NCBI RefSeq assembly: GCF_023612375.1 | Contig: NZ_CP076852.1 | Span: 248,001-312,000, forward strand | Direction of reading: 5' to 3' | Source: Mycoplasma sp. SG1 | GTDB lineage: Bacteria > Bacillota_I > Bacilli_A > Mycoplasmatales > SG1 | Length of the DNA: 64,000 nt | Shown here: piece after piece, positions 5,692 to 43,153 of the stretch | How the letters are laid out: each line of letters starts with the position of its first letter | Numbering within the stretch: position 1 is the stretch's first letter | Position numbers and translations under genes: made by a program | Notes under the pieces: model-generated | Seen by the model: the letters and a program-made list of their open reading frames with translations, nothing else | What the model was told of the DNA's origin: nothing | Database searches by the model: none

Positions 5692-5697
5692 AATTGT

Positions 5698-6498: not shown

Positions 6499-6621
6499 GA
6501 TAGGGCGTTCAATTAGAATCAATAAGTTTTATTACTACTTATCAATAATCTTTATAATATTTAAAAAAAGTAATTTAAAAATACAATCAACAAAACAACA
6601 AAACTAGACAAATATTTATTT

Positions 6622-6945: not shown

Positions 6946-6975
6946 CACAACAAATAAAAAAAATAATAGACAATA

Positions 6976-7560
6976 ATGGGTAATTTTTTTAGTTTCAATT
7001 TTTATGACAGAACTCCAGATATTAAAGGAGATTTATTTCCAAATATTTCGACTTTGATAGCGCACTTAATTGCCTTATTTGTGTTACTTTTCATTATCTA
7101 CCGTTTTGCTTGAAAGCCGTTTAAAAAGTTTGTTAAAGCAAGACATGATTATATTCAAGATAACATTAAATCTTCAGAACAAAAATTATTTTTATCACTT
7201 GAAAATGTCCAAAAATCTAAAGAAAATTTAGATAAAACCAGCATTCAAGCTGATCAAATTATTGAATCTTCAAAACTTGAAGCTTATAAAGTCAAGGAAT
7301 TGATTATTAATAAAGCTAAAAAAGAGATTGAAATCGAAAGAGAAAATTTTAAAAATGAAATGGAGCAGGTAAAAAATAAATTTTTAAAACAGCAAAAAGA
7401 TTTTATTGTTGATTCTGCTTATCAAATATCAAAAGAGTTTATTAAAACAAATAACTCAGAAGAAGCAGATAAGAAATTTATTGCTAAACTGCTTGCTCAA
7501 AAATCAGAAGAAAATTTATCTCAATCAAAAAATACTAAAAAAATAGATAAACAAAAATAA
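6976..7560 (+). CDS. atpF: ATP synthase F0 subunit b
   Basis: Subunit b is the peripheral stalk linking F0 to the delta subunit. The 194-residue protein has one membrane segment (roughly residues 22-44, SLIAHLIALFVLLFIIYRFAW; Trp is TGA) followed by the Pro-Phe-Lys-Lys-Phe turn. A long charged helix with coiled-coil character fills the rest. Unlike some mycoplasma b subunits I see no lipobox cysteine at the N-terminus. Position between atpE and atpH fits, and the start ATG 6976 is the only one giving the membrane helix. Confidence 0.9.
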
Positions 7561-7589
7561 ATCTTATTTTTTAAACATATTACACTTTA

Positions 7590-8153
7590 ATGCTTTTAAA
7601 TAGCAATTACATTAGAAGTTTATCTGAAGCAGTTTTTGGTCATTTTGAATCGATTAATAAAACTGCTTCTTTAATTAGTGATATTAAAGAATTGAATAAT
7701 ATTTTATCGACAAATAATGGACAAAATTTCCAAAAATTTTTAGATGATTTATTAATTTCAAGGGATGAAAAAATCAAAATAATTAAAAATATTTTTGATA
7801 AAAAAATAAGTCCTGATCTTGTTTATTTTTTTACTTTAATCATTAAACTTGGTTGTGAAAGTTTTTTTAAAAGAATTTTAGATAATATTCTTGTCATTAA
7901 TCAAGTTAGTTTAAATAAACAAACTGTCTTTTTTGAAAGCTATTACAAAATGGATGATAAAAAGATCGAAAAATATATTTTTGAATATTTTCCAAACTTA
8001 AAACCACTATTTCAACAAAAATTAATCACTATAACATCATCAGTTAATAAACAACTACTTGGTGGCTTTAAAATCCAAGTCGGTAATTCATTAATTGATA
8101 ACACTATTTTATTTTCTTTAAATAAAGCAGTTACCCATTTAAAATCAAATTAA
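7590..8153 (+). CDS. atpH: ATP synthase F1 subunit delta
   Basis: The delta subunit caps the alpha3beta3 head and holds the b stalk. The 187-residue product is close to family length. The N-terminal helical domain is divergent. The C-terminal signature, [24 protein letters not shown] around residues 148-172, matches the family pattern in which a Gly-Gly-x-x-(I/V) strand precedes D-x-S-(V/I) in the delta subunit. Order in the operon (after atpF, 17 bases before atpA) makes the identity secure. Confidence 0.9.
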
Positions 8154-14811: not shown

Positions 14812-16781
14812 ATGAAAAAATACCATATTTTAAGAAAAATCAGGAACTCCTTTATTATCAAAAGTAAATTTAAAATCTTTTTAACCGCTTTTCTTATTTT
14901 TATTTCAAGTGTTTTGATTTTATTTTCGCTTCTAATTCCTTCTTCTTTACAACAATATTCATCAGGAATGTTAAATGAGTTAAATCCATATAAATCATAT
15001 GTTGACTATGACACCAACCCCTGAAATTCACCAACTTTTAATTATGGAGGTGAAGATGGTGAAGACAAAGTTCCTGATCCGTTAACCTCTCCATCTAAAA
15101 GATATTCAACTTATGGATGATATAACCCGAATGATGAAACCAGTTTTAAAAATCGTAATCCAATAAATGATAGTTCCCTAGCTGTTGCATCTTATTTTGC
15201 TTATTTAAGCGGATTAGCGATTAATAATAACTACATAGATCAACTTAATAATATAAAAGACCCGCTATTGGTTCCTATTGTTTGTAATATGATGGGGGAT
15301 AATAATCCTGATGATATTAAAAAAGGAGTCGGTGCATGTATTAAACATGTTATTACAAGTAATGCTCCTTATTTTGTTAGGCAAAAAATGAACAATAAAA
15401 ATTTTGCTTTAACGTTTGGTTTAACCCCTTTTGATAAAAAAAGCGACGAACATATTGTAAATATTCCTTTTTATTTAAATAAATTAAATGTTAGTCTTTG
15501 AGGTGTTAATTCTCAAACGACAAGATTAAACTCTACCATTAAAAATACATTAAATTCAGATTGAATTAATGATCAAACTGCAAATTATGATAGATTTGCT
15601 GAAAATTCAACAAGTGTTTTTACCAATAATCTGCCTGTTGTTATCAATAAAGCTGCTGCCAAACTTTTAAATTTAAAAACCGGTGATCTTAAAAGATTCA
15701 ACTATTCATATTATCAAATCCAAGTTAAAAACGGTGATAATAAATGAGATCCAGCAGAACCATCACAATTTAAAGCAAATATAAAAACAGCAACCGGAAT
15801 ATTTGTACACCTCCAAACAAACCAGGAGATCCTTGAACATGTTTCAATCCATATGCTACCTATCAGTCAACCTACTGATATAAGGGTCAATCCGTTGTTA
15901 AAATGGTTCACGAAGGTAATATGAGAATTCAAGAAATTAACCAAAATGTTAAATATAGCGTAGTTGCAATATCCCCTGATGTTGGATTTCCTCGTTTTTA
16001 TACAACATCACAATTTGCTACAGCTTTATTATTCGGAAATAAAGAAAATATTCTTAATTTAGCAAAAAATCAAATTGATAAAGATTATTTTATGAGTTTT
16101 TTTGGATATTATCCTACGAAAGCGAATAACAGTAATTATGCTTATAAACCATATTCATCATACTATAACGCTAAATTAACTACTGATACATCCCCAAATG
16201 ATTTATCAACTTATAATGTTAACCAACCATACAATGACTATTCTCAGTTTGGATTAAATGGTGGAAAAGTTCAATTTGGAAATAAAAAAATTGTTAATTT
16301 TACTCAAAATGGTAAATCGATTATTTCAAGTTTATTTTCTTGAGATATAGTTCATAATTCATTCTGGAAAGTTATAACTTCTATTATTTATTTAATTATT
16401 TTAATTGTTGTTATTTCGTTGTTTTTAGGGTTAATTATTATGGCGATAACTACAAATAGCATTATGATTGAATCAAGAAAACAAATTGTTCTTTTAAAAG
16501 CTTTTGGTTACAATGATAAAGAAATTTTAAAAACCAGCGCCGGTTATTATATTTTCTTAGTTATTATCGCTTTTGTCTTATCTTGCTTTCTAACCATATT
16601 CCTATCTCAATATTTATTCTATGTTTTCTTTGCAAGCAAGAATTTATATATCCCTTTTTCATTTCAATGATGGGTTTTAATTGTTGGTTTTATTTTGTTA
16701 TTAGTAATTTACTATGTTAACAAATTGATAGCATGAAAAATAAATAAAACCTTTGTTCCAGCTGAAGCTGTTAAAGAATAA
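14812..16781 (+). pseudogene. FtsX-type permease (second of two), single frameshift
   Basis: Begins 2 bases after the first permease. The N-terminal half reads in one frame from ATG 14812 (membrane helix at residues 20-43, then a polar domain) and would stop at TAG 15961. The C-terminal half continues one frame back, from about 15774 to TAA 16781. It carries MVHEG..., a membrane helix, the FtsX coupling motif IVLLKAFGYNDKEI and three further helices. The two frames overlap between 15774 and 15960, and loss of one base around 15774-15800 joins them into a protein of about 655 residues. If real, the gene gives a truncated permease without its core helices. A homopolymer sequencing error is an alternative. 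Confidence 0.68.
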
Positions 16782-21452: not shown

Positions 21453-23201
21453 ATGGATCTAAATATAGCATTAAAAAAAATTAAAAATTTTGCAAAAGAA
21501 ACATTAAATGCTGAGCAAAAAAAAATAGCAGAATCCATACTAAAAAATTCATGTAATGAAAACGGAGATGTCGATGATAAAGTGCTACAATTTATTATTC
21601 CTATCATCAAAACCGGTTTTGTTTTTGATAAAGCTCCAGAAGTAGATCAAGATAATATCGCTATTGTTGAAGAATCGAAAAACTACAAAAAAATTGGAAC
21701 AAGCGGTCCTTGTCATAGTTTAATCATTGGTGAAAATTATGAAGCTTTAAAAAATCTTAAATTAGTTTTTTCTAGATCAGAACGAGGTAATATAGTTGGT
21801 TTTATTGATATTATTTATATCGATCCCCCTTATAATACCCAAAAATCAAAAGAAGAAGGAAACGATTATAAAGAAGAAATAAAATCTTTTGGTGATTTTA
21901 TTTATCGTGATAAGTATAAAAGAACCGGTTGACTAAACATGATGGACGAAAGATTAAGATTAGCTAAAGATCTTTTAACCGATGATGGCGTTATTTTTAT
22001 TTCTATTGATGACAGTGAATGTTCATATTTAAAGGTATTATGTGATGAAATTTTTGGAGAAGAAAATTTTGTTACATCGATTCCACGCCTTACCAGAACT
22101 GGAAGAGGTGGTCAGGAAAAGTATTTGTGTAAAGCTCATGATTATGTTCTTGTTTATTCTTTTGATGTTGATTTTAATTACATAACAGAAAAATTAATGC
22201 TAGGGACAGACATTTTAAAAGATGAATACGGAAGAGAATATTTCAAAGGGGACTCTTCTCCGATTGTAGCTGGTAAATCGCAAGGATATTCAAAAGGCGG
22301 AGATTATGATTTTGAATATCAAGGTAAAATATATTCTCCAAATGATAAAAGCGGAAACAGGAATAGATGGTTATGAAATAAAACAAGAATGGAAGCAGCC
22401 GCAAATCTTGGTATATTAGTTCCTGTCGGAGAACAGTTAAGGCAACGGACATATATACATTGAAAGTTTGAATCTAAAGGTCCTAACAAAAATACAATGG
22501 TTCGTAAACATGAAAACTGAAAATTTAATAGTATGGATTTTTTCTTAAATAAACCTGTTATAGACAAAAATTTTTCAGAAACAGAGAAAAACTCTTCTAT
22601 AAAAAATTTGCTAAAAATTGATAATCAATACACTAATGATAAAGGCACAGCAGAAGTAAAAAAAATTTTTCCTGACTATGCGCACGAAAAATTATTTAAT
22701 TTTCCAAAACCTTTGGCGTTAATCAAACAATTAATTAAATTAAAAGTGAATAACAAAAACGCTATTATTTTAGATTTTTTTGCAGGTTCAGGAACAACCG
22801 GAGAAGCGGTTATGGAACTTAACGAAGAAGACAGCGGAAGCAGAAGATGTATTCTTGTAACTAACAACGAAAATAACATCGCTAAAGATATTACTTATGA
22901 AAGACTTTATCGTGTTATAAACGGAAAAGGTTCTAATAATCAGGAAATTAAATGAAAATACTCATCTACTAAACCTTCTTTAACTAATAACACAGTAAAT
23001 ATTTTTGAAATTAATCATTATCCTTGCGGAATTAATGAAAATCCTGATTATCTTCAAAATTTAGTTAAATCGGAATTAATTAAAATAAATCCTGATGTAA
23101 AATTTAATGATATTCAATTAAATCGTGATTTATCATCTCTTAATCCGTATGATAAGTCTAAATTAAATAAAACAGAAATCAAAGATTTAGAAAAGTTTTA
23201 A
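21453..23201 (+). CDS. mod: Type III restriction-modification methyltransferase Mod (mod1)
   Basis: Type III Mod proteins methylate adenine (N6) in an asymmetric site and also provide sequence recognition for the Res nuclease. This copy has 582 residues. DPPY (motif IV) is at residues 124-127 and the AdoMet motif FAGSGTT at about 443-449. That order, DPPY first, is the beta-class arrangement of Type III Mods. The roughly 200 residues between about 200 and 420 form the variable target-recognition domain. The N- and C-terminal parts are near-identical in sequence to the other Mod genes of this cluster. Recognition domain related to mod2 but clearly divergent. Codons 21-25 contain a run of nine A residues. 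Several TGA tryptophans. Catalytically intact by motifs. Confidence 0.92.
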
Positions 23202-24447: not shown

Positions 24448-24605
24448 TATTTAGGTATATAGTAACGCGAGATAATATACAAAAAATTTTAAAAATAAAC
24501 AAATAAAACAAACGGATTAAAAATCATAGATCAATTTATTTTTTATTTGTAAAGAAAATCTTTTGTTTTATGTTGTAAATGTAAAAAGCATAATATAATG
24601 GTCTG

Positions 24606-24611
24606 TTATAA
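24606..24611 (+). promoter_or_regulatory. -10 element abutting mod2 start (leaderless?)
   Basis: TATAAT ends 7 bases before the mod2 ATG at 24619. Transcription starting at the usual distance would begin at or beside the start codon, giving a leaderless mRNA. The same element with the same T-run recurs before the mod remnant at 31626-31631. Confidence 0.5.
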
Positions 24612-24618
24612 TTTTTTT

Positions 24619-26289
24619 ATGAATTTAAAAAAAGCAATAGAAAAAATTCAAAATATTGCAAAACAATCTTTTAATAGTGAACAAAAAAAATTAGCAGAAA
24701 TTATTTTAAGAAAGACATCTGATAACGGTGAAATAGATGATAAAATATTTCAATTTATTTTACCTATTATCAAAACAGGTTTTGTTTTTGATAAAGCTCC
24801 TGAAGTAGATCAAAACAATATTGCTATTACTCAAGAATCCAAAAATTTTAAAAGAATCGGAACAAACGGAGTTAATCATAGTTTAATCATTGGCGAAAAT
24901 TATGAAGCTTTAAAAAATCTTAAATTAGCTTTTTCTAAATTAGAAAACGGAAAAAGAACAGGATTAATTGATATCATCTATATCGATCCTCCTTATAATA
25001 CTTATAAATCTAAAGAAGAAGGAAACGATTACAAAGAAGATATAAAATCTTCTGGTAATTTTATTTATCGTGATAAATATAAACAAACCGGTTGATTAAA
25101 TATGATGCACGAAAGATTAAAAATAGCCAAGGATCTTTTAAAAGATGATGGGGTTATTTTTATTTCGATTGATGATAGTGAATTGGGTTATTTAATAGTA
25201 TTATGCGATGAAATTTTTGGAGAAGATAAATTTGTTACAGCAATCCCGAGATTAACCAGAATCGGAAGAGGGGGAGGAGTTGATAAAGATTTATGTAAAG
25301 GGCATGATTATATTCTTGTTTATTCTTTTGATAATAGGTTTAACAAAATCAAAAAAAGATCATTTAAAGGTATCGAAATACTAGAAGATAAAAACGGTAA
25401 ATATATTAAAGGCGATACATCTCCAATCTTAGCAAGCAAATCACAAGGATATTCAAAAGGTGGAGATTATGATTTTGAATATCAAGGCAAAATATATAAA
25501 CCTATCGATTCTTATGGTAAAAAAAATACTTGGTTATGAAATAAAGAAAGAATGGAAGTAGCAGCTAAACTTGGTATTTTAGTTGTTTCCAAAAATCAGT
25601 TAAGGGTTCAAAAGTATTTAGATACAACTTTTGAATTTAAAGGACCTTATAAAAATCAAATGGTTGATAAACCTAAGAACTTTATCTTTCATACAGGCGA
25701 TTTCATGTTAAATAAATTTGCTAATTTAGAAGGTTCTTCAGAAATGAAAAAAATGTTTTCTGATTATTCATCAGATAAATGATTTACTTTTCCAAAACCA
25801 CTATCTTTAATTAAAGAATTAATTAAATTAAAAGTGAATAACGAAAACGCTATCATTTTAGATTTTTTTGCAGGTTCAGGAACGACTGGACAAGCTGTTA
25901 TGGAATTAAATGAAGAAGATGGGGGAAACAGAAAATTTATTCTTGTTACTAACAACGAAAATAACATTGCTAAAGACATTACTTATGAACGGCTTTATCG
26001 TGCTATTAACGGAAAGGGTTCTAAGAATCAAGAAATTCTATGGAAATATTCATCTACTAAACCATCTTTAACTAACAATACTGTAAATATCTTTGAAATC
26101 AATCATTATCCATGTAGCAACAAAGAAGATCCTGATATTCTTCAAGAGTTAGTTAAATCGGAATTAATTAAATTGAATCCAGATGCAAAATTTAATTATC
26201 TTCGATTAAATCGCGATTTATCATCCCTTTTTCCTTATGATAAATCAAAACTAAATAAAACAGAAATCAAAGATTTAGAAACATCTTAA
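24619..26289 (+). CDS. mod: Type III restriction-modification methyltransferase Mod (mod2)
   Basis: A 556-residue Mod protein. The N-terminal block, with MNLKKAIEKIQ, KTGFVFDKAPEVDQ and HSLIIGENYEALKNL, is shared with the other copies. DPPY near residue 125 and FAGSGTT around residue 416 are intact. The recognition domain (about residues 200-390) is homologous to that of mod1, with GRGGG, GHDYILVYSFD, KSQGYSKGGDYDFEYQGKIY and KERMEVAAKLGI, but differs at many positions, so the two may recognise related but different sites. I chose ATG 24619 over an in-frame ATG at 24598 because it matches the N-termini of mod3 and mod5. An 8-A run lies at codon 24-26. No res gene follows directly. Confidence 0.91.
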
Positions 26290-26369: not shown

Positions 26370-28004
26370 ATGGCTACTGAAAATAACAACATACTATCAA
26401 TAAATCCGATAGATAACTTGTCTAAACACAATGACAAAATATCGATGATTGATTATGTTATTCGCCCTATTAACGAATATATTCATGATTTTTTTAAAAA
26501 TAAAAACGCACCTAACAGCAAACCTTTTCATAATGTTTTTAATATTAATGGCGGTTGAGGTTCAGGCAAAACAACTATTATTCAAAACTTAACAACATAT
26601 TATAAAAAATCTTATCCAAGCGATGATATAAATTTTAAAATACTAAATTTATGAGAATGTGAATTGTATGTTGATCCGGCACGAGTTATTCTTGATATTA
26701 TAAATTTCATAGACACTTCTGTATACGATGAAAAAGATAAAATAAGCACAACCAGCGGAGAAAAAATAACCAAAAAAGGTATTTTGGTGTTGAAAAGTTT
26801 TTGGTACCACCTTTCTGGATCGTATACTTATGAAAAGGTAAAAGAAAATAGTCGTATAAAACATCCCCCAAGGATAGACGAACTCATAAATGGTTATATA
26901 GAAGAATTAAACAATAATACAAAAAACAAATCCATTGTGTTTATATTTGATGAATTGGAAAGATGTACTCCAGAGAACCAAATAAAAATTTTATCCATTA
27001 TTAAAAATATTTTTTGAAAAGTAACAAATATATTTTGAATAGTTGTTTCTAATAATAAATTGATCAATCAACATATAAATGGTAATTTAGATATAAACCT
27101 TTTGAAATTAACATACAATGAAAAGTATACAGATAAAATATTCCCTATTCAATTGGATTTAGATAATATATATCCAGAGATATTTATAGACAATTTTACT
27201 GACAATAAATATATAAAGGAGTTTTGTAACAAAGTTAATATTTCTTCATTAAAATTGAACATTAAATTAATTATTCAGGTAAATAATTTATTTAACTCAT
27301 TAAAAAACAAGAATGAATTTGAGGTTCTTTTTAAAGAATATAAATCAAATTCAAAAGAAGCAGAAATTATCAGCATACAAAAAGATTACTTAGAATTGAT
27401 AATCTTTTATTGTTATTATTTAAAGTACGAGGATAATAAAGAGTATAAAGAACTAATAAAGTTAACAGACAGTCATTTATTAAAATCAAATTTTTTACAT
27501 CTTTTTATAAATAATATTATTGTTCAATACAGGAAGAAAGCTATATTAGATACAGATAAGTTTCCACTGGAAACATCAATTAAATCTTTAATTACTAAAG
27601 GTCGAAACACTGATGATCCTTATATAACCATCGATAGAATAAACTATACGCCTTTTAAGCTTGATTATTTTTTGAATGATCGCTTTAATGATAATAATTT
27701 AAAAAATTGATTTTTTGGTTTAATTCCATTTTTTGGCTCCCATTTAACAACAGATAATATTAGTCAAATTTTTTCCATAGAAGAAGGCTCTACCAATCAA
27801 TTACATATTGTTATTATCAAAAAAGAATATTTGCTATATTATTTTCCAACTCATAAAAAATGTTTTTTTAATATTTTTTTTAGATATATAAAATCAGAAA
27901 TTCCATTCTCATTCTTTTCAAATGGGAATGATCATTTAAAAATAATTACATACTCTAAAATTAGTAAATTAATTAAAGATTCAATACTTGATCGTTTTAA
28001 TTAG
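26370..28004 (+). CDS. KAP-family P-loop NTPase
   Basis: A 544-residue protein. Walker A is GGWGSGKTT at residues 61-69 (Trp is TGA) and Walker B is IVFIFDELERC near residues 188-198. The combination of a Trp or Phe before GSGKT and DELxRC after the strand is the signature of KAP NTPases. Insertions after the P-loop in KAP proteins often carry membrane helices; here the region between the motifs (about residues 70-185) is polar and helical with no clear membrane helix. The C-terminal 250 residues are unrecognised. KAP NTPases occur often in bacterial anti-phage loci. It sits between mod2 and mod3 with no shared frame, so it is probably island cargo. Confidence 0.75.
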
Positions 28005-28518
28005 TTTTGTCATTTAAAACGTGATTAAAATTAAATCAAAACAAAAACATCAAAGATAAGTAAGATTTCGGATTTAATTTAACGCTTAGAAGCGATAAAA
28101 TACGGATGATAATGGTTATTTTTATATTTAATAATTATTCATTTTAAATTTGTATATTTAAATCATCAGCACTCAAAAGTAAAATTAACAGTAGAATTTA
28201 TTGCACATTTTGATATTTTAATAAAAACAGATCTTTAAAAATTTTAGAAATAAATTAATAAAAAATGTCCCCATTCATTTTTTGGATAAGACTGTCAATG
28301 CCGTTTAAAACAATTGGTCTTAATAAGATTAATCAATATTAACTTATAAAATTAATCTTAATTTCATAAAACCCGTTGGTTAAAAATTATACATAATATA
28401 TAAAAAAGGATAAATATTATCATATATTGAAGTTTTTAATATTTTTTACCCTGTTATAATAGCATAAATACTGGTTATCACCGGTGTTAATGTAAAAACA
28501 TAAGTTCTAAATAATTCT
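28005..28518 (+). other. 514-base gene-free stretch before mod3
   Basis: No reading frame of useful length on either strand. It has a 9-bp inverted repeat (aagattaat at 28325-28333 with attaatctt at 28351-28359) and, at its 3' end, the mod3 promoter and leader. The rest looks like decayed AT-rich sequence. No transposase fragment could be recognised. Confidence 0.6.
28455..28518 (+). promoter_or_regulatory. Promoter/leader module of mod3
   Basis: TATAAT at 28455-28460, a short hairpin (ctggt-tatc-accgg, 28471-28484, one G-U pair), then the string ataagttctaaataattc directly before the ATG. The same order recurs upstream of mod5 (35721-35789) with a different hairpin sequence. A conserved leader with a hairpin suggests shared expression control or that the two units were copied together. 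Confidence 0.55.
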
Positions 28519-29922
28519 ATGGACTTAAAAAAAGCTTTAAAAACAATCAATAATATTTCTATAGATTTATTAACTCCTGAAAAAAAACAATTAGTAAATG
28601 ATATTTTAACCTTAACACTCAAAGACAACGGCGATGTAGATGAAAAAATATTTCGTCTTATTTTACCAATTGTTAAAATCGGATTTATTTTTGATAAAGC
28701 CCCTGAAGTTGATCAAGATAATATTGCGGTTATTCAAGAATCTAAAAATTATCCAAAAATAGGAACAAATGGACCTTGTCATAGTTTAATTATTGGTGAA
28801 AACTACGAAGCTTTAAAAAATCTTAAATTAATTTTTTCAAATTCAGAAAATGATAACAAGAGTGGTTTAATCGATTTTATTTATATCGATCCTCCTTACA
28901 ATACTCAAAAAACAAAAGAAGATGGTAATGATTATAAGGAAGATCAAGAAACATATTCTGAGGATTTTTTAAAACTAAACAACAAGAAAACATCTAAAAA
29001 ACCATCATTTGGTAATTTTATTTATCGTGATAAATACAAAAGAACCGGTTGATTAAACATGATGGATGAAAGACTAAGATTAGCTAAATCGCTTTTAAAA
29101 AAGGATGGCCTTATTTTTATTTCGATTGATGATAGTGAATTTTGTTATTTAAAGATAATATGTGATGACATATTTGGCGCTGACAATTTTATTTCATCTT
29201 TAGTTTGACATGCACGACGTGGGGGAGGTAATGATGTTAAACTTGTTGCTGTTGATCATGAATATATAATTTGTTACTCCAATTGTCAAGAAACCTCATC
29301 ATTACAACAAAAAAGAAATAATTTAGATTTTATTAAAAAGTGCCAAAACTTATTAAGATCTAAGAATTTATTAAAAACTTTAGCTACCGTAACGACAAGC
29401 ACTGGTAATAAAAATTTAAAAGATCTTGGAATTAATTTATTTCCCTATCCAAAACCAGTTAATTTAATCAAAGAATTAATTAGCGTTTTTTCTAAGAAAG
29501 ATTCTATCATTTTAGATTTTTTTGCAGGATCAGGAACAACTGGACAAGCTGTTATGGAATTAAATGAAGAAGATGGAGGTAACAGAAAATTTATTCTTGT
29601 TACTAACAACGAAAACAATATAGCCAAAGACATAACTTATGAACGACTTTATCGTGTTATAAATGGGAAAGGTACTAAGAATCAAAAAATTAAATGAAAA
29701 TATACATCATCTAAACAATCTTTAACTAATAACACTGTAAATATCTTTGAAATAAACCATATTGATCAAAACACAATTGATAAAGATCGAGATAAAATCC
29801 TAGAAGAAGTTAAAGAGCAGTTAAGAAAACTAAATCCAAATCCAAAATTTAAAGATATAGATTTAACTTCTGATTTATCTTCACTTTATCCTTATCATAA
29901 ATATTTAAATAAAAATCAATAA
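28519..29922 (+). CDS. mod: Type III Mod with shortened recognition domain (mod3)
   Basis: A 467-residue Mod. The N-terminal block and DPPY (near residue 126) and the C-terminal block with FAGSGTTGQAVMELNEEDGG are intact. Between the FISSL position and the YPKPV position only about 85-90 residues remain, against 150-200 in the other copies, so most of the recognition domain appears to be missing. Unlike the other Mods it carries an extra 20-residue insertion (SEDFLKLNNKKTSKKPSF) just after the DPPY block. Frame is intact throughout with TGA tryptophans. It may be a non-specific or inactive Mod, or recognise a short target. mod4 starts 41 bases later. Confidence 0.88.
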
Positions 29923-29962: not shown

Positions 29963-31588
29963 ATGGATTTAAAAACAGCATGTAGAAAAATTAATAATTT
30001 TGCACGACAATCATTAACCGCTGAGCAAAAAAAATTAATAAAATACATCTTAGAAAAAGTTAGTAAAAATAATGAAGTAGATGATAAAATTATCCAGCAT
30101 CTAACTTTAATTATTCAAACCGGTTTTGTTTTTGATAAAGTTCCTCAAGTTGAACAAGATAACATCCCTGTTATTCAAGAGTCTAAAAATTATCGAAAAA
30201 TAGGTTCTGGATCTATTGATCATAGTTTGATTTTTGGCAACAATCTTGAAGTTTTAAAAAATCTTCAATTAGCATTTCAACCAAAAATAGGCAGACCCGG
30301 ATTAATTGACATTATTTATACTAACCTTTCTTCTGTCAATAAAAAACAAGATGAAAAACAAAATTTTAAAAATAAGAATTTATTCACATTTCATTTAAAT
30401 AAGTTCAAAGCAAACGGTTGATTAAATCAATTAAAGGAAAAATTAAAAATAACCAAAAATCTTTTAACCGATGAAGGGGTTATTTTTATTTCAATAGATG
30501 AAAGTGAATATGCTTATTTAAAGGTTTTATGTGATGAGATATTTGGCGAAGATAACTTCATTGCTACTTTGGTTCGTCCATCTTTAAACAAAGAATATGA
30601 AGCTTTATCAGTCGATCATGAATATATAGCTTGTTATGGTAAAAACAAAAAAAAATCTTTATTAGAAGGGTCTCTTAAACCAGAAGAAGCTTTTAAGTAT
30701 AAAGATGAACATTATCAAGAACGGGGAAAATATAATTTAGAACATTTTGAGGCAGGTAGTTTAGATTACACTCCATCGCTTGATTATCCAATTCAAGCTC
30801 CTGATGGAACTTTAATTTATCCTGGACACGTATCTAAAGAGGAACATCTTAAAAGAAAAGCAAACAAAAAACCGCGGAATGATTGACGTTGAATGATTAG
30901 CAAATCGACATATGATGACTATTTCAAAGATGGCTCGATAGTCTTTCGTCAAAACAAACAAAAACGATGATCTGCTGCAAGAAAAAGTTATCAGTTTATA
31001 GATGTTAAAGGTAACCCCGTTCATAAGTTATGAAAGTTAAGAAGTATCATCGAGTCTCCCAAAGATGCAGAAAATAATCATAAATTCAAGTCATTGGGTC
31101 TTGATAATTTTAATCGCTTAAAATTAATTCAATTATTAAAAAAAATAATTCGCTCTTTTGATCCAAAAAAAATTAAAAAAAGTATTTTTATCCTTGATTT
31201 TAAAACAGATACGACCTTTCTAGCACAAGCAGTTATGGAATTAAATCAAGAAGATAATTACATAAGAAAATGTCTTTTTATTTCAAACAATAAAGATCCA
31301 AATTTAAACAAAACTTTTTATAATGATTTATTAAGACTCATTGAGAATAATAATCAAGATAATTCTAAAAAATATTTCAGTAATGGCGAGTTATTTGAAC
31401 CATTTGTAAATAACACTGTAAATATTTTTGAAATAAATTATCATGATTTTAGGATTGATCAAGATCCAGATTATCTTTTAGATTTAGTTAAATCTGAATT
31501 AATTAAACTAAATCCAAAATTTAAATTTAATGATCGTGTTCTTAATAATCAATTATCAACATCGTTCCTTGTAAACAAAACAAAATAG
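29963..31588 (+). CDS. Mod homologue with both catalytic motifs lost (mod4)
   Basis: A 541-residue protein, in frame from ATG to TAG with TGA tryptophans. It aligns end to end with the Mod proteins: RKINNFARQSLTAEQKK, TGFVFDKVPQVEQDNIP, GVIFISIDESEYAYLKVLCDEIFGEDNF and the C-terminal VNNTVNIFEIN. But DPPYNT is replaced by TNLSSV at residues 120-125 (IDIIYTNLSSVN), and the AdoMet motif FAGSGTT is replaced by FKTDTTF around residue 410. Neither the methyl donor nor the target base should be handled, so it is very unlikely to methylate. The recognition region (about residues 200-390) is full length and different from the others. In Type III enzymes one Mod subunit can read the site while another methylates, so this could still act as a recognition subunit. 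Confidence 0.85.
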
Positions 31589-31757: not shown

Positions 31758-32724
31758 ATGATAAAAAAATTTAATGAAAAAAAGTTATATTATATATTCC
31801 AAATCTTTTTAAAAAATAATAAAGTTAATGATGATGTTATAAAAAATTCCAAAATATATAAAAAATTAATTAGTATTGGATTTGTTGAAAAAACTAATTT
31901 TTGAATTGTAAATATAACTTCAATGTGTCTTGAAAAAAATCCAGAACAATTAAGAATTAGAAATGATAATTTTTTAACACATGTTAAAAATAATTCAAAC
32001 TGTTGTATTCTTTCTGCTATAAAAATTGAAAATAAAATATTATATTTAATTTTTTTTGGTAAAAGTTTTTATGGTTATAATTTTAAAAATGATGTTGGTA
32101 ATAGTTTTATAAATTTTAATTACTCTGAATTAATAAATTTAGGTTCTTATGAAAATGATATTATACAAACAAAAAATGTAAGAGAAAAAACTAAATATTA
32201 TTTTTATACTTCAATTGATAATAATTTTGATAAAGATAAATTTATAACTTTTTGAGATTTAATTAATAGCACTAAATTCGACCCATATAATTTAAAAAAT
32301 AGTAAATTAGATCCAAATATTCCAGAAAAAACTAAAGAATATGTAGCAACACTTTTTAATGAAATTTGTTCACTTTATGATACAAACGGTCATGAATATT
32401 GTAAAAGCAATATAAATTGAGAAGAATATAAAAAAATAGGTAGAAAATGCTATGAAATTCATCATTTTGTTCCAAAAAAAATATTTTAAAAGTAAAAAAG
32501 GTTTATTAAATTGAAATATTATTCATGATCCTATAAATTTAATACCTTTGTGCAATTTATGTCATTCTTCAATACATAAAAAAAATAATAAAAGTTTAGT
32601 TATTAAAAAATATAAAGAAATAATTGGAGCATATAAACACATTAATAAATTAAATGAATTAAAAAATTATGTTGAAAAAAATACAATTTATAATTTAAAT
32701 ACATTAATAAATTTTTATATTTAA
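31758..32724 (+). pseudogene. HNH endonuclease, frameshifted at an A8 tract
   Basis: The first frame from ATG 31758 gives 243 residues and stops at TAA 32487, just after YEIHHFVPKKIF. The rest of the domain, with GLLNWNIIHDPINLIPLCNLCHSSIHK, continues in the next frame to TAA 32722. Together they give the full HNH pattern His-His, Asn, Cys-x2-Cys-His. The junction is an 8-A run (32474-32481); seven A residues would join the frames into a protein of about 322 residues. The upstream 230 residues are unrecognised and AT-rich. It precedes a methyltransferase gene by 11 bases, so the pair looks like a Type II restriction-modification system. As it stands the nuclease is split before its metal-binding His. 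Confidence 0.75.
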
Positions 32725-32735
32725 AAAGGTAAAAA

Positions 32736-33757
32736 ATGAAAAAAATAATTTGAGATTTATTTGGTGGTGGACAAAACAGTGTTTATAATTCATTGAAAAA
32801 GTATAATCTTTTATCTATGTATGAAGTATATACTTTTGATATTACCAAACCAACCAGAAAACATCACTATAAAATCGATTTATCACAAGATAATATAGTA
32901 GAAATATTTAAAAATTTTCCAGCACCCGATATTATTGTAGCTTCTCCATTATGTCAATCTTTTAGTTGTGTTTTGAATATGAAGGGTGGTGGTACTACAT
33001 TTTGAAAATATGATAAAGAATTAAATAAGATAGTTTTAAGAAGTGTGGAGGAGTTTGAAAAACTAAAAAGTGGTTTTACAAGACGTTTAAAAGCAGAAAC
33101 ACAACTATTTTTAGCAAAATTAGGACAAAAATGTATTAATAATACCATTGAACTTATTAAGAAATACAAACCTAAATTTTGATATATAGAAAATCCTAAA
33201 AATTCTTTAATTTGAAAATATATAACCTTGAATAAAAAAGATTTTTGAGATTTAAATAATTTTTTTTAAATGAAGCGAGTTATGGTAAATATGGATATTT
33301 TATAACAAAACCTACTATTTTTATGAGTAATATAAAAATGGATTTATTAAAAGGTAAAATACCACCACCTTACTTTACTAAAATTGATGAAAATGGTCAA
33401 AAGTGATACATATTAAAAGATAATGAAAGAATTAAATATAAAATGCAAAGTAGAATTATTGGAATTTCTTCATTAAAAACAATTATCAAGGCTAGAAAAG
33501 TAAAATCTGGTATGGCTGGAATGGATTTTATTTCTTTAAATGATACAAAAAAAATATCAATTAAAAATAAATTAACAAATGAACAGATAAATGAAGGTGG
33601 TATAACCAGTTCTATTCCATATAAATTAATTAATGATATTTTTTGTTATTTTAATAACGAAACACCAATTTTTGTTGATGACGAACAACAATTTAAAAAA
33701 AGTAGTGATAAAAGTTTTGATGTAAATGAAGGACAAAGACGGAAAACAATAATTTAA
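32736..33757 (+). pseudogene. Cytosine-C5-type DNA methyltransferase, frameshifted at a T8 tract
   Basis: First frame from ATG 32736: the AdoMet motif DLFGGGQ at residues 7-13, the catalytic loop IIVASPLCQSFS at residues 66-77 (Cys in the place of the family PCQ) and WYIENPKNS around residue 152 (motif VI ENP/ENV), then TAA 33267. The second frame, from about 33269, gives NEASYGKYGYFITKPTIF and a C-terminal IIGISS...RKVKSGMAG... region to TAA 33757. Nine T residues instead of the eight at 33260-33267 would join them into about 340 residues. A ribosome-binding AAAAAGG lies 7 bases before the start. The 33758-33876 stretch could be a decayed tail (KEITELKQ...YGEPSEWQKMF). Both nuclease and methyltransferase are broken by homopolymers. 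Confidence 0.75.
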
Positions 33758-34680: not shown

Positions 34681-35293
34681 TGCTTAAAAGTAAAATTACC
34701 ATATGAATTTTCTGAATTCAACGATCCTAACGAAAAAGTTATTAAAGAAGATATTAAAGATAGTTCAAAAGGACTACTTTATTTATTACCCTGATACAAA
34801 TTCTGAAGATGATAAAACAATAATATTAGATTCAATCCCAGAAGCTTTAATTTTTAAAAAACTTAAAAGAATAGTAGAGAATCGTGAAAATGTTCATTTA
34901 ATTTATTGAGGTAAAAATCCTGGTAAAATCTCTGGGAATAATGTTTCTTTTGAGTATTTAGATGATGACAATACTATTAAAAAAGCTTTTTTTGATTTTA
35001 TTGTAAAAATAGAAAATAGTCTATTATTTTTAGAAGTTAAAGATCAAAATGATATTGATATCAATAAAACAGCAAACATCGAAGAAGCAATGAATTCATA
35101 CTTTAAAAAAGGGGTAAATAAAACAAATTTATTTTTAGCAATTGTAAATGTTAAGGATACTGAATATACGATAAAAAATATTTATTGTAAAGACGAAAAA
35201 CTTAGTGATACATTTAAAAAATATGCTTATAAATTTATAAGTAATTTGGATTATATCATTGATGAAATTTTAGAAATAAATAACCAAAGTTAA
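34681..35293 (+). pseudogene. 3' remnant of a Type III res gene
   Basis: The frame ending at TAA 35293 encodes the C-terminal domain of a Res protein. It matches the intact Res (37348-39642) from FIYYPDT through IYWGKNPGKI, FEYLDDDNTIKKAF, the PD-(D/E)xK-type strand LFLEVKD, MNSYFKKGVNKTNLFLAIVNV and YCKDEKL. Its 5' part reads in the +1 neighbour frame (LPYEFSEFNDPNEK) and matches the corresponding Res segment, so a frameshift lies near 34770. The helicase two-thirds of the gene is missing. It is probably what is left of the res gene that once followed another mod copy, before the Type II pair came in between. Confidence 0.75.
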
Positions 35294-35789: not shown

Positions 35790-37346
35790 ATGGATCTTAA
35801 AAAAGCTATCACAAAAATAGATAATATAGCAAAACAATTATTAAATACAGAACAAAAATCTTTAGCTAAAACCATATTAAAAAATTCATGTAAAAATGGT
35901 GAAGTAGATGACAAAATACTCCAATTCATTTTACCTATTATCAAAACCGGTTTTGTTTTCGATAAAGCCCCAGAAGTAGATCAAGATAACATCGCTGTTA
36001 TTCAAGAATCTAAAAATTATCGAAAAATAGGGACAAACGGACCTTGCCATAATTTAATTATTGGTGAAAATTATGAAGTTTTAAAAAATCTTAGATTAGT
36101 TTTTTCTAAATTAGATTCAGGGGAAAGAATAGGTTTAATTGATGTTATATATATCGATCCTCCTTATAATACTCAAAGATCAAAAGATGAAGGAAACGAT
36201 TATAAAGAAGAAGTATCTTCTTCTGGTAAGTTTATTTATCGTGATAAATATAAAAGAACTGGTTGATTAAACATGATGGACGAAAGATTAAGATTAGCTA
36301 AAGATCTTTTAACTGAAGATGGAGTTATTTTTATTTCTATTGATGACAGTGAATGTGCTTATTTAAAAGTGTTATGCGATGAAATATTCCATGAAGATAA
36401 TTTTATTTCTTGTCTAACATGACATTCAAGTAATACCGTTTTAAAACCTGGTAAAAATATTAGAAAAGATCATGAATATATTTTAGTTTATAGCAAAGAT
36501 ATAACCAAAACCGCTTTTAATAAACTAAAAGGATCAATGGATTTTTTTAATATAGATAATGATCCGAAAGGACCATGGTTTAGTGCAAACGCAGCCCCTG
36601 GAATTGGTAAAGAAGAGTTTCCTATAACATTACCAAATGGTTCAGTTGTTGTAAGAAGATGAGGGTTTACAAAAGAAGAGTATGAAAACGGTTCAGTTAA
36701 TTTGTATTTTAAAGGTAATAATGTTCCTAGAATTAAAGTTTATAAATCAGAATATATTCAAAATAAAACCCCATCTTCAATCATTTCAAGTGATATCGGT
36801 GGAACTTTAACAACCGCTAAAAATGATTTAAAAAAACTTTATATCTCATTTGATACTCCAAAACCAGTTAAATTAATAAAATATCTTTTATCCATTTCTA
36901 CAAAAAAATCAAGTCTTGTTTTAGATTTTTTTGCAGGTTCAGGAACGACTGGACAAGCGGTTATGGAATTAAATGAAGAAGATGGCGGAAACCGCAGATT
37001 TATTCTTGTAACCAACAACGAAAACAATATTGCTAAAGATATTACTTATGAAAGACTTTATCGTCTTATTAACAACAAAGCTTTTAATAATCCAGAAATA
37101 ACAAATATCAACATTAAAAAATGATTAAACAACAATCAAGTTGATATTTTTGAAATAAATCATTATTTATGTACGATCGATAAAGATCCAGAAAAACTTA
37201 AAAAACTGGTCATCTCTGAATTAAAAAAACTAAATGAAGATGTCAAGTTTGAAGATTTAAGATTAAATCGAGATTTGTCATCACTTTTTCCCTATGATAA
37301 GTCAAAGCTAAATAAAAATGAAATAAAGGATTTAAATAAATTTTAA
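35790..37346 (+). CDS. mod: Type III restriction-modification methyltransferase Mod (mod5)
   Basis: The Mod copy that directly precedes res. It has 518 residues with the shared N-terminal block, DPPY near residue 125 and FAGSGTTGQAVMELNEEDGG around residue 380, so it should methylate. The recognition domain (about residues 205-365) is unlike those of mod1, mod2 and mod4, with WHSSNTVLKPGKNIRKDHEYILVYSKD and NAAPGIGKEEFPITLPNGS. The A-run found early in mod1 to mod4 is only five A residues here. Stop and the res start are separated by one base, so mod5 and res are clearly translated as one unit, and this is the default partner of Res. Confidence 0.93.
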
Positions 37347-37347: not shown

Positions 37348-39642
37348 ATGATTCTTACAGAAGCCCAAGAATGAGCGGTTAGTGATATAGTAAATAGGTA
37401 TAGAAATAATTTAAAAGAAATTTCTTTTAAAGCACCCACTGCGTCTGGGAAAACATTTATGATTGCAAATGTTATCTCGAGATTATCAAAAATAATAACC
37501 GACAATGGCGATAAATTTCTTTGTATTTGTGCAACCATCACTGATGCTGGTTTACCAAGACAAATGGAGGAAAATTTTCGTGATTATCAAATCTATTTAG
37601 ATCGAACAATCGGAAATCTTTTTGAAATTAAACATTATGTAAGTCCTAGTATCAGTAATGCTAATAAATCTAAAAATGATGCTGATGTAAGAGTGGATCC
37701 TATTGAAAACGGGGTTTTGATTTTTGGAAAATCATCATTTGGGAAAGATCGAATTTTTACTGAAAGGGATGTTATTAAACAATTAGTTGATAAAATAAAA
37801 ATTGCTAATTGAAAATTAATTTACATTAGAGATGAAGCTCACTTAGGGGGGAATAAACTTCCAAAAGAAAATTTATTTATTAATCAACATTTTGAAAGTA
37901 TATTACAAGAAAATGCTGATTTTGTTATTTTAATGACAGCAACCCCTAAAACTAGCAGTGAACATTTAATTGAAATCAATTTAAATAAGTTGATAAAACC
38001 TAGTGATGGTAAGTTTCTAATTAAAACAGATTCAAAATTAGATAGAGGGATTTCCAAAGATATTAAGGAAATAGAAGACTTTGAATATTTTAAACAAGCG
38101 ATTCAATACTTTAAAAAGAAAGTTCAACCAGCTTATAAAAAAGATCCAGCATTAAAAGATATCCGTCCTTGTGTTTTAATTCAAGTTGATAATTCATCTG
38201 CTAATCCAGGAAAAAAAGAAACATGAGAAACAGAATTTGCTAAAGTTACAGCTTATTTAAAAAATGAGTTAGCGACAGCTGTTTATTTTGGAGAAGAAAA
38301 ATATTCTTTAAACATAAAAGAAGATTGCGATGAACGAGCGCTTTCAAAAAATGATTCTTTATATGATTGTGTTGTTTTTAAAGTTGCCTTAGCAAAAGGG
38401 TGAAATATTCCAAGAGCATGTATGTTAATTCAGTTAAGAGACTTATCATCATCTGCTTTAAACATTCAAACTTTAGGAAGAATAAAACGAAACCCAATCA
38501 GAACGCTAGAATATAACGCAACAGCTTTAAAATATTATATCTACTCAAGAGTACCTGAATCAAGGGATAATTTTATCAGATACGTCATTAATCCTAAATA
38601 TAAAGATAAAAAAGAATTTCCGCAAATAAGAATTAAAAACCCTCAACATGTAATAATCACTCCTGAAGAACTTTTAACTAAAACAAAAGACCTTTTAATT
38701 AAAAAACAGGGTAGAATAGTTGAAATTTATCATAATGATTTTTTGAAAAAGAAACGTTTAGCAATTGAAATTTCAAATGTTAATAACTTGAAAAGAGTTT
38801 ATTATATTACTAATTGTTTTCAATTTAAAGAATATGTCTTAAATTTATGTCAGAAATATAATAATCTTTTTAAGACACTAAGCGATCTAATAATAGAACA
38901 ATTTGAAAATTTTAAAATCAAGAATCCTAAAATAACAAAATACCATTATTATTTCGTATTATTTTCTGATAAATACGAAATTCGTGATGAAATATTTACG
39001 ATTTACAACACCAGCAAAACAGTTATAAAAAATTCAGTAACTTACGAATTAAAAAAAACAGCTTTGCCATCATCATTTATTGAATCAAATGATCCATCTG
39101 AAAAAAAACCATTCGAAAATTATAACCCAAGCCTTAAACAATTATTTTATTACCCAGATACAAAGATACCATCTAAAAAGAAAATATTATTTGATTCAAA
39201 TTCTGAACGAATTATTTTTGATGAAATTAAAGATATTTTAAAAAACCACAACGATGTTGATTTTATTAATTGAGGGAAAAATCCAGGAAAAATAGTTGAT
39301 AATCATTTATTTTTTGAATATTTAGATAAAGAAAGTACGATTAAAAAAGCTTTTACTGATTTTATTTTAAAAATAAAAAATAAATTTTTACTTATAGAAG
39401 TTAAAAACAAAAAAGATATCGACCCCTTAAAAACCGAAACTTTAAAAAGTGCAATGGCAGATTATTTTAATAAAGGAATCGATGAAAAAAATTTATTTTT
39501 TACAGTTTTATCTGTTAATAAAATCCGATATGATATCGATGAAATCCATTGTAAAGATGAAAAACTTTATCGACATTTAAATAACCCCCCTGAAGAAAAA
39601 ACATTAGAAAAAATTATTAATAAAATTTTGTATTATTCATAA
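37348..39642 (+). CDS. res: Type III restriction endonuclease subunit Res
   Basis: Res is the helicase-like ATPase and nuclease of Type III systems. It has 764 residues, shorter than the classic 900-970. Helicase motifs are in order: Walker A KAPTASGKTF at residues 28-37, DEAH at 162-165 (RDEAHLG), MTATP at 196-200 and motif VI QTLGRIKRNP at about 374-383. The nuclease domain is C-terminal, with FLLIEVKNKKD near residue 685 (PD-(D/E)xK type) following FEYLDKESTIKKAFTDF. The whole frame is intact with TGA tryptophans. It is the only complete res gene for five mod genes. It starts one base after mod5. Two unknown paralogous genes follow. Confidence 0.92.
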
Positions 39643-39709: not shown

Positions 39710-40324
39710 ATGATAAATATAGTTATAAATAAAAAAACTGAAATAAACGAAAAAATAAACTTAGAAATAGCATATAAATCTGGTACTTATAATTTAATTT
39801 TAAATGGATTAAATTTTCTTTTAGTAGTTAATTTTGAAGAAAATCAAAACGATTATATTTCTTTAATGGGTAAAAAATATTCCGCTGATTATTTATATAG
39901 ATACGGTGGATGGACAACAGGATTAAAAGTACTAGTTTGAGAGTTGTGATCAAGACATATAGAACATATATCTGAAGCAGAACTTTTAAATGCAAAAAAA
40001 AGTTATCACCAAAAAACGATAAAAATCCTTGAATTTAACAAAACATCTTTTGAAGAAAATATCAAAAAAATTATCAATCATTACCCACAATTTTCCAAAT
40101 TTTATAAAGACGCTAAAAAAAGTCTTGAAGCGATACAAAAAACCGAAAAAGACAGATACATCTTATTAATTAAGCAGATGAAGATCTTAGTTGATTTAAA
40201 GCAACAAATGGAATATAACTGTCCAGAAATAAAAAATAAAATATCCAATGATGCCATTGAACAATTTAAAATAAGTAATCCAGAGTTGGCAAAAATGATA
40301 ATTGATAGTAAAAAAAATTATTAA
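39710..40324 (+). CDS. Unknown paralogue A downstream of res (204 aa)
   Basis: A 204-residue protein of unknown family. The N-terminal half holds a distinctive block, SLMGKKYSADYLYRYGGWTTGLKVLV followed by ELWSRHIE, that is shared nearly word for word with the next gene. Before it a strand-like NLILNGLNFLLVVNFEEN reads as a beta hairpin, and after it a Lys-rich helical tail ends in NPELAKMIIDSKK. The Gly-Gly/Tyr-rich core suggests a small enzyme or nucleic-acid-binding fold, but I recognise no catalytic motif. It begins 67 bases after res. Confidence 0.6.
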
Positions 40325-40401
40325 AAGTTGAATGTAGCAATTAATAAATTTTTGGAAAAACAATATAAAACATTTTAAAATAACGCAATATATCAAAAAA
40401 T

Positions 40402-41016
40402 ATGAAAAATATAGCTATATCTAATAAATCAGAAATACTCAAAAAAATAAATTTAGATGTAGCATATATATCTGGTATATATAACTTAAATTTAAATGGG
40501 CGCCATTTTATATTAATAGTTAATTTTGATGAAAACGGAGAAAAAGGTTATGTATATTTAATGGGTAAAAAATATTCTCATAGCTACTTATATAGATATG
40601 GTGGAGTAACGACAGGATTAAAAGTATTGGTTAGAGAATTATGGTTAAGACACATTGAAAATAGACCAGAGCAAGAAATTAAAAATGATATAGATAAGTT
40701 TCATCAAAAACATATAAAAATTCTTGAATTTAATAAATCCTTTGTTCAAAAAAATCTAGAAGATCTTATCAAGAACTATCCAGGATTTGATAGTCTTTAT
40801 GAAGACACCAAAAAAACTCTTAAAACCATTTATGAAACAGAAAATGATAGATACACCCAATTAAAAAAACAAATTAAGGTTCTAGGATATACAATACGTA
40901 AAATTGAATTAAGTTGTCCAGAGATACAAGAAAAAAGGACTAATGAAATTATAGAACGATGAAAAATAAGTAATCCAGAACTTTACAAAATATGAAAAAA
41001 TAATAAAACTTTCTAA
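40402..41016 (+). CDS. Unknown paralogue B (204 aa)
   Basis: Same length (204 residues) as paralogue A and clearly homologous along its full length. It shares SNKSEILKKINLDVAYISGIYNLNLNG..FILIVNFDENG, YLMGKKYSHSYLYRYGGVTTGLKVLVRELWLRHIE, the IKILEFNKSF repeat of the middle helix and the terminal ISNPEL. Three TGA tryptophans lie at the C-terminus. The 77-base gap between the copies holds no gene. Tandem duplication of a gene that travels with a Type III res is unusual; the function could be auxiliary to restriction, or anti-toxin-like, but nothing in the sequence proves it. Confidence 0.6.
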
Positions 41017-41168: not shown

Positions 41169-43153
41169 ATGTTTAAAATAAATTCTTCTTATGATTTAAA
41201 AGCTGATCAAATTAATGCAGTTGAAAATTTAGTTAATAATATTAAATCAAAAAAGAAAAAACATAATGTTTTACTAGGCGCAACAGGTACAGGTAAAACC
41301 TTTACTATTGCTAATGTTATTCAAAAACTAAATTTGCCAACTTTAATTATCGCTCACAATAAAACTTTAGCTGCGCAACTTTATGGCGAGTATAAAGCTT
41401 TATTTAAAGATAATTGTGTTGAGTATTACATCAGTTACTTTGATTTTTATCAACCAGAAGCTTATTTACCAAGTTCAGGAACTTACATTGATAAAACATC
41501 AAAAATAAACGACTTAATCAAAATGCTTCGTTTAAGCACTTTAAATGGGGTAACTCAACATAAGGATGTTGTCGTTATTGCATCGGTTGCATCTATTTAT
41601 GGCACTATCGATCCAAATGAATATAAAACTTTATTTTTAGAAATAAAGGTTAATGATGTTTTTCCAAAGATGCAGATCTTAAAAAGATTAATTGAAATAG
41701 GATATTTAAGAAATCAGTTAACTATTGAAAAAAATGGTTTTTTCTACGCAAGGGGAGATGTTATTGAAATTTCACCTGGATGAACATCAGATTTTAATAT
41801 TCGAATTGAGTTATATGGGGATACAATTGAAAAAATTGTAACTTTTAGTCCTTACAATCATAATATTTTACATGAATATAAACGTTATGTCATTTTTCCT
41901 GCAGATGATTATTTATATAACATTGATCGAACTAAACTAGCTTGTATCAAAATTAAAGAAGAATTAAAAGAAAGAATTACGTTTTTTACTAATCAACAAA
42001 AACTAGCTGAAAGCGAACGAATTCAAGCAAGAACAAATAAAGATGTTGAAGATCTTTTAAATTTTAATATTTGTCATGGAATTGAAAACTATGGAAGACA
42101 TCTTGAAAACAGACCACCTGGATCTGCTCCTTTTACTTTAATTGATTTCTTTAATTTAAATGATTGATTATTAATTATTGATGAATCGCATATGACTATT
42201 CCCAAATTAAAGGTATGTATAATACTGATATTAGTCGTAAATCTACGTTAGTAGAATATGGTTTTCGTTTACCTAGTTGTTTAGATAATAGACCTTTAAA
42301 TTATCAAGAATTTGAAAGTAAAATTAGAAATGCGATATATTTATCAGCCACCCCAGGTGATTTTGAACTTGAAAAAGCTAACAACGAAATAGTAGAACAG
42401 ATCATAAGACCAACTGGTCTTGTTGATCCTTTAATAGAAGTTAGACCGCGTTTAAATCAATTGGATAATCTTTTAAGCGAAATCAAAGAAACTGTTAAAA
42501 GAAAACAACGTATTTTTGTTGTTACTTTAACAATTAGATCAGCCGAAGAAGTAAGTGATTTCTTAGTTAAGAAAAAAATCAAAAGTGTTTATCTTCATAA
42601 TAAGATAAAAACGCTTGAAAGAACCGATATCTTATTAAAATTAAGAAAGGGGATTTATGACTGCGTTGTTGGGATTAATCTTTTAAGGGAGGGTTTAGAT
42701 ATTCCTGAAATTTCAAGAATCTTAATTCTTGATGCTGATAAAGAAGGATTTCTGCGTGATAAAAGAAGTTTAATTCAAATTATTGGTCGAGCCGCTAGAA
42801 ACGTTGATGGTAAAGTAATTATGTATGCTGATAAGTATACAAAGTCAATGTCTGCTGCTATTTATGAAACTAATCGGAGAAGAAATATTCAAATTGAATA
42901 TAATCAAAAAAACAATATTATTCCCCAAACAATCATAAAACCAATTGATGAGTCATTTTTATCTATTTCTGAACAGTTTTATGGTAAAAAAACTGCAAAA
43001 TCAGTTGCTTTAAAAAAATTAAACAAAACTGATACTTTAAAAGCGATCAGATCGATTCGTTCTGAAATGATGAAAGCTGCGAAAAAACTTGATTTTGAAA
43101 AAGCTGCAAAATTAAGGGATATTATTTTTGAGCTTGAGCTAAATATTAAATAA
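41169..43153 (+). pseudogene. uvrB: Excinuclease ABC subunit B, frameshifted
   Basis: UvrB is the damage-verifying ATPase of nucleotide excision repair. Part one (frame from ATG 41169) holds LLGATGTGKTFT (Walker A), the beta-hairpin region YYISYFDFYQPEAYLPSSGTYIDK and DESHMTIPKLK. Part two, in the preceding frame, starts GMYNTDISRKSTLVEYGFRLPS and continues with LREGLDIPEISRILILDADKEGFLRD, QIIGRAARN and the C-terminal UvrC-binding EMMKAAKKLDFEKAAKLRDIIFEL. The canonical text is IPQxRGMYNGDxxRK, so exactly one base is missing in taaagg around 42208-42213. Read as is, the protein ends at TAG 42247 without helicase motifs IV-VI. Either uvrB is inactivated in this genome or one A was lost in sequencing. 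About 662 residues when joined. Confidence 0.85.

What the first reader, a model, noticed from the sequence alone, without database searches (positions are those of the whole stretch)
29963..31588. Mod-like protein with both catalytic motifs replaced but frame and recognition region intact
DPPYNT is replaced by TNLSSV and FAGSGTT by FKTDTTF, while the 541-codon frame carries no stop and the recognition region is full length. A decaying gene would also accumulate stops and shifts, as the Type II pair nearby has done. In Type III complexes one Mod reads DNA and another methylates, so a dead Mod could act as a recognition-only subunit, a decoy or a regulator by DNA binding.
Basis: partly seen in the sequence, partly recalled or inferred. 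Interest (0 to 1): 0.78.

Follow-up and report, generated by a model that had tools for sequence, protein, structure and literature searches.

The report
Split reader/writer Type III methyltransferase pair
Two neighbouring DNA-methyltransferase genes in a small mollicute genome have lost opposite halves of the same machine, one its catalytic site and the other its DNA-reading domain, so they probably work only as a pair, a natural version of the 'one subunit reads, the other methylates' model.

Summary
Read with genetic code 4 (TGA=Trp), ORF 29963-31588 ('M4') is an intact 541-aa Type III Mod in which motif IV (IDPPYNT→TNLSSV) and motif I (FFAGSGTTG→KTDTTFLA) are both gone. In a survey of about 150 mollicute Mods it was the only one in an open frame lacking both. 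It is not simply drifting: ω=1 on its branch is rejected (p≈2e-17); it keeps 27/32 conserved recognition-domain positions but only 11/28 in the second catalytic half; neutral drift to that degree should have left about 20 stops, where there are none. M3 (28519-29922), 40 bp upstream, is the complement: full catalytic site, recognition core deleted (shortest recognition span of 142 Mods measured). Its remaining RRGGGND loop occurs only in Mods with M4's recognition-domain class, so both descend from Mods of one specificity class. In EcoP15I one Mod reads DNA and the other methylates; M4 keeps reader parts, M3 writer parts. Best explanation: an M4 (reader)–M3 (writer) heterodimer, working like METTL14–METTL3. 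Sequence supports function and complementarity; dimerisation, methylation and expression are untested, and no orthologue from another strain was available. New variant of a known kind.

The parts
29963..31588 (+). M4: 541-aa Mod with degenerate catalytic cleft and full recognition domain (proposed reader)
   Evidence: Pfam N6_N4_Mtase 1.8e-9; PADLOC MTase_III 6.9e-44
30320..30337 (+). M4 motif IV position: TNLSSV in place of DPPYNT
   Evidence: in the survey alignment I, D, P, P and Y are substituted, N and T fall in a gap
30674..30997 (+). M4 recognition-domain (TRD) core, residues 238-345
   Evidence: 53% identity to L124; 27 of 32 class-invariant positions kept; pLDDT mostly 82-92 with one dip to 73
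31109..31126 (+). M4 motif X: FNRLKL in place of FxxPKP
31199..31225 (+). M4 motif I: FKTDTTFLA in place of FFAGSGTTG
28519..29922 (+). M3: 467-aa Mod with intact catalytic site and deleted TRD core (proposed writer)
   Evidence: Pfam N6_N4_Mtase 4e-37
28888..28905 (+). M3 motif IV DPPYNT, intact
29206..29235 (+). M3 loop WHARRGGGND, signature of M4's TRD class; its ND aligns with EcoP15I Asn232/Asn233
   Evidence: residue roles from PMC4490356
29290..29370 (+). Stub where the M3 TRD core (about 110 aa) is missing
   Evidence: pLDDT below 50 for residues 266-287
29518..29541 (+). M3 motif I FFAGSGTT, intact
28453..28518 (+). Leader of M3 (TATAAT, then ATAAGTTCTAAATAATTC before ATG), resembling that of M5; M4 has none
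   Evidence: no terminator-like site between M3 and M4
35790..37346 (+). M5: complete Mod with a different TRD, directly before res
37348..39642 (+). Res: the only full-length Type III restriction subunit found in the window
   Evidence: Pfam ResIII 1.9e-12; PADLOC REase_III 3.6e-79
21453..23201 (+). M1: complete Mod paralogue
24598..26289 (+). M2: complete Mod paralogue (ATG homologous to the others at 24619)
34703..35293 (+). Remnant of a second Res C-terminus, 51% identical to Res 601-740

Best explanation
M4 and its upstream neighbour M3 are two Type III Mods of one specificity class that have degenerated in opposite ways and now work as an obligate heterodimer. M4 takes the place of EcoP15I ModA: its recognition domain reads the DNA and its C-terminal domain probably docks Res, while its own cleft, which in ModA is empty and far from the DNA anyway, has been lost. 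M3 takes the place of ModB: it holds the catalytic site (DPPY, FxGxG) and the loop that contacts the base left unpaired, and methylates the adenine, while its recognition core, which in ModB does not enter the major groove, has been lost. Shown here: the opposite lesions, the shared recognition-domain class, same-strand adjacency 40 bp apart, conservation of M4 outside the cleft. Inferred: heterodimer formation, methylation, Res docking, co-transcription.
For: M4 lacks motifs IV and I, M3 has both. M3 has the shortest recognition span (125 aa; next real value 190; median 229) among 142 Mods measured and M4 is the only double-motif loser, and the two are adjacent. Positions invariant in L124, L130 and L037: TRD core M4 27/32, M3 0/32; second catalytic half M4 11/28, M3 23/28, M5 25/28; M4 TRD versus catalytic half Fisher p=4e-4. 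M3's loop is 64% identical to L124, M4's 38%, other paralogue M5 33%; RRGGGND occurs only in M3 and Mods with M4-class TRD (also L146). Omega on the M4 branch 0.04 (synonymous changes saturated), omega=1 rejected, 2dlnL=72. Neutral simulation: T=0.3 substitutions per site, about what the cleft losses imply, gives about 20 stops; observed 0. Predicted folds match Type III Mods 7dsu, 6k0w and 4zcf for both. Division of labour in EcoP15I from PMC4490356. M4 has no leader of its own resembling that of M3 and M5.
Against: No orthologous pair in 320 genomes of the order, so selection after inactivation rests on one sequence. The low branch omega includes time before inactivation. M4 lost its loop and some AdoMet-domain residues that could matter for folding; its model is mediocre (pLDDT 74, pTM 0.65). 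The leader comparison is by eye and M1 and M2 also lack it. No expression, methylome or complex data. A dying locus could also leave two damaged neighbours, and a Res remnant lies downstream.
Confidence: 0.5

Rival explanations
1. M4 is a functional recognition subunit without a dedicated partner: it pairs with any of the Mods (M1, M2, M3, M5) through the shared N-terminal domain, giving them a second specificity or blocking them, and brings Res to its sites.
For: All five Mods share an N-terminal domain (51-64% identity to M4) and a C-terminal domain (40-44%), while those parts are unrelated to foreign Mods of the same TRD class. There is one full-length Res in the window for all.
Against: Does not explain why the adjacent gene has lost exactly the recognition core of the same class.
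Confidence: 0.2
2. M3 and M4 are both relics of a dying duplicate system, inactivated recently enough, or held open by chance, that frames are still intact.
For: A Res remnant (34703-35293) and a broken HNH/C5-MTase pair lie next to them. A comparable Mod with both motifs lost in another genome (L018) is frameshifted next to a broken Res. Single-sequence evidence only.
Against: Losses in M4 are concentrated in the cleft. Even 0.05 neutral substitutions per site gives a mean of 4.8 stops and P(0)=0.005 in this AT-rich gene. TRD conservation: P of 5 or fewer losses in 32 is 6e-5 at the 50% loss the cleft implies. M3 keeps a complete active site.
Confidence: 0.22
3. M4 acts alone as a sequence-specific DNA-binding protein, for example a regulator or a competitor at restriction sites.
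For: Complete TRD, no catalytic motifs.
Against: Type III Mods bind as dimers with recognition shared between subunits (PMC4490356); the paired lesion in M3 is left unexplained.
Confidence: 0.08

Closest known systems
EcoP15I Mod2Res1 (PDB 4ZCF, PMC4490356) and Mbo45V Mod (PDB 7dsu)
   Same: Beta-class Mod fold with N-terminal, MTase, recognition and C-terminal domains; in EcoP15I one Mod reads and the other methylates
   Different: There both roles are played by two copies of one complete protein; here two genes have each lost one role
METTL3-METTL14 (PMC5023411, PMC8828048)
   Same: [quoted passage not shown] dimer resembles EcoP15I
   Different: Eukaryotic, acts on RNA and single-stranded DNA, neither subunit keeps a Type III recognition domain, METTL14 keeps a near-motif EPPL
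Tandem mod genes with one res in mycoplasmas (e.g. Mycoplasma agalactiae, PMC9465063)
   Same: Several Mods beside one Res
   Different: Those keep DPPY and FxGxG and vary by GA-repeat phase variation; here the two genes have fixed, opposite domain losses and no such repeat was seen in them

Membership tests
Type III Mod (N6_N4_Mtase) | Homology over the whole Mod architecture | tested here: met
   Pfam, PADLOC, phmmer and Foldseek all place M4 and M3 with Type III Mods
Type III Mod (active methyltransferase) | Motif IV DPPY and motif I FxGxG | tested here: not met
   M4 lacks both; M3 has both
Type III Mod | Recognition domain between motif VIII and motif X | tested here: met
   Met in M4; not met in M3, whose core is deleted
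Type III R-M system | Res subunit encoded nearby | tested here: met
   Full Res at 37348-39642, about 5.8 kb downstream of M4 and directly after M5; that it serves M3/M4 is not shown
METTL3-METTL14-type heterodimer (works like) | Stable heterodimer with one inactive subunit needed for activity | not testable with these tools
   Only single-chain models were possible; needs co-purification and activity assay
Pseudogene | Stops, frameshifts or neutral substitution pattern | tested here: inconclusive
   No stop or shift and branch omega well below 1, conservation concentrated outside the cleft; but the branch includes time before inactivation and strain comparison was not possible

The most novel reading that the evidence does not exclude
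Probability: 0.45. Interest if true: 0.85.

Novelty: new variant of a known kind. Interest (0 to 1): 0.7.

Why it matters
Whether beta-class methyltransferases in general work with one subunit reading and the other methylating was proposed from the EcoP15I structure, where both subunits are identical and the roles are hard to separate genetically. A pair in which nature has removed the unused half from each subunit would make that model directly testable with two plasmids and a methylome, and would show in bacteria the kind of step that could lead to heterodimers such as METTL3-METTL14. If the pair is a relic, it is an instructive case of how Mods decay.

Tried and rejected
Strain-level dN/dS: no genome of the same genus or family is held, so replaced by a branch model on the five paralogues. 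Search of genome contigs with M4 gave four distant Mods only; viral contigs gave only distant Mods. Identity as a published Hepatoplasma was considered and dropped: reported sizes and GC (22.5-24.7%) differ from this window (26.7%). Hidden compensating frameshifts as the cause of the motif changes were looked for by eye in the DNA of motifs IV and I; no clear case, not tested further. Apparent further motif losers were checked: L071 (FYTGSGT) and L203 (FHLGSGTT) only missed the search pattern; L014 starts at the motif in a split gene; L012 (FAGSETT) and two Mods of L066 (DLPY; GSCAT) carry single substitutions; the short span of L214 is a pattern error. Independent decoy or regulator ranked below the pair because it leaves M3 unexplained.

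Full report
Setting. The window lies in a 622,752-bp single-contig genome of the mollicute type that reads TGA as Trp; window GC is 26.7%. It carries an array of five Type III Mod genes on the + strand, here M1 to M5, and one full-length Res after M5. No genome of the same genus or family is held, so all comparisons are with paralogues and with Mods of other families in the order.

Observation. With code 4 the ORF 29963-31588 (M4) is 541 aa without a stop. IDPPYNT of M1, M2, M3 and M5 is TNLSSV, and FFAGSGTTG is KTDTTFLA. I then scanned related Mods in 320 genomes of the order. Of 152 distinct ORFs spanning both motif regions, M4 is the only one lacking both. The survey is not exhaustive: hit lists were cut and at most four candidates per genome were scored. 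One other Mod with both motifs changed, L018, is split by frameshifts and sits before a broken Res; that is what a decayed Mod looks like here.

Is M4 drifting. Three lines say not. First, a codon model on the five paralogues outside the recognition domain gives omega 0.04 on the M4 branch against 0.10 elsewhere, and rejects omega=1 with 2dlnL=72, p=2e-17. Synonymous change on that branch is saturated and the branch includes time before inactivation, so this rejects neutrality of the whole branch only. Second, the losses are not spread evenly. Against 119 active Mods, M4 has lost the conserved residues of motif IV and most of motif I, with further losses in motif X, II and III, while residues 153-199 of the fold are nearly all kept. 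Against three Mods of related recognition class, M4 keeps 27 of 32 invariant positions in the recognition core but 11 of 28 in the second catalytic half, where M3 keeps 23 and M5 25; the lost positions are listed. Third, simulation of neutral decay with this composition gives 4.8 stops at 0.05 substitutions per site and about 20 at 0.3, the level at which half of motif residues would be lost. M4 has none. Treating motif changes as few events weakens but does not remove this, because about ten further conserved positions of the second catalytic half are lost one by one. The split into regions was chosen after seeing the motifs, so these p-values are guides.

The neighbour. M3, which ends 40 bp before M4, keeps DPPYNT, FFAGSGTT and motif X, but the distance from motif V to motif I is 125 aa, against 190 or more in the other Mods measured and a median of 229 (one shorter value was a pattern error). 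The missing part is the recognition core. What is left at its edge, WHARRGGGND, is 64% identical over the loop to L124 and L130, and the RRGGGND signature occurs only in M3 and in Mods carrying M4's recognition class (L146). So M3 and M4 once carried the same class of recognition domain; M4 now holds the only copy in this array, and M3 the catalytic site. Their N- and C-terminal domains belong to the family of the other local Mods. Whether they are direct duplicates of each other, or acquired that recognition class separately, is not settled: the tree of the shared parts does not group them firmly.

How it would work. In EcoP15I, ModA reads DNA with its recognition domain and binds Res with its C-terminal domain, its cleft being empty and more than 30 angstrom from the DNA; ModB takes up the flipped adenine and its recognition domain stays out of the groove (PMC4490356). 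ModB residues named there are Asp123-Tyr126, Asn232/Asn233 on the unpaired thymine, and Asn416/Lys418 of motif X. By alignment M3 has DPPY, ND at 232/233, and Tyr-Pro-Lys at motif X; M4 has lost DPPY and the loop, and keeps only the Lys. M4 keeps what ModA uses, M3 what ModB uses. The prediction is an M4-M3 heterodimer. M3 and M5 share a leader sequence that M4 lacks, and no terminator-like site was found between M3 and M4, which fits a joint transcript but does not show it.

Structure. AlphaFold models from an alignment of 42 Mods: M4 pLDDT 74, with the recognition domain mostly 82-92 and cleft loops low; M3 pLDDT 77, with the motif I region mostly above 90 and the recognition stub below 50. 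Both match solved Type III Mods best. Single-chain models say nothing on pairing.

Doubts. One sequence, no orthologous pair, no expression or methylome. A Res remnant lies downstream, and a frameshifted HNH-like gene and C5-MTase lie between, so joint decay is the main rival. However uvrB in the same window also has a 1-nt shift, so some of those shifts may be consensus errors.

Novelty. Searches of the held papers for paired mod genes, inactive Mods and pseudo-methyltransferases found no described split Type III Mod pair; subscription papers and REBASE were not searched. METTL3-METTL14 is the nearest working analogue (PMC5023411, PMC8828048). I file it as a new variant of a known kind.

Noticed in passing
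31758-33757: HNH-like nuclease split by a frameshift near 32480 and a C5 cytosine methyltransferase broken near 33269 at a run of T.
   Followed up: partly
41169-43153: uvrB is split by a 1-nt frameshift near 42200; an ABC-transporter permease-like gene at 14812-16781 is also split. May be assembly errors or real.
   Followed up: partly
26370-28004: KAP-family P-loop NTPase (weak QatA and PDC-S20 matches) between M2 and M3, a possible further defence gene.
   Followed up: partly
39710-41016: Two tandem 204-aa proteins of unknown family, about 72% identical in DNA.
   Followed up: no
L018 (G020) 1336-2681: Another Mod with both catalytic motifs changed (DLTY; IFGSHDTF), split by frameshifts, beside a broken Res: a decayed Type III system.
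   Followed up: yes
L066 (G112) 2373-8011: Array of three Mods in which the first has DPPY changed to DLPY and the third has motif I GSGTT changed to GSCAT; possibly another case of divided labour by point mutation.
   Followed up: partly
many loci, e.g. L073, L074, L065: In many mycoplasma Mods the N-terminal domain and the catalytic part lie in different frames joined at a GA-repeat (RERERE), the known phase-variation arrangement.
   Followed up: partly
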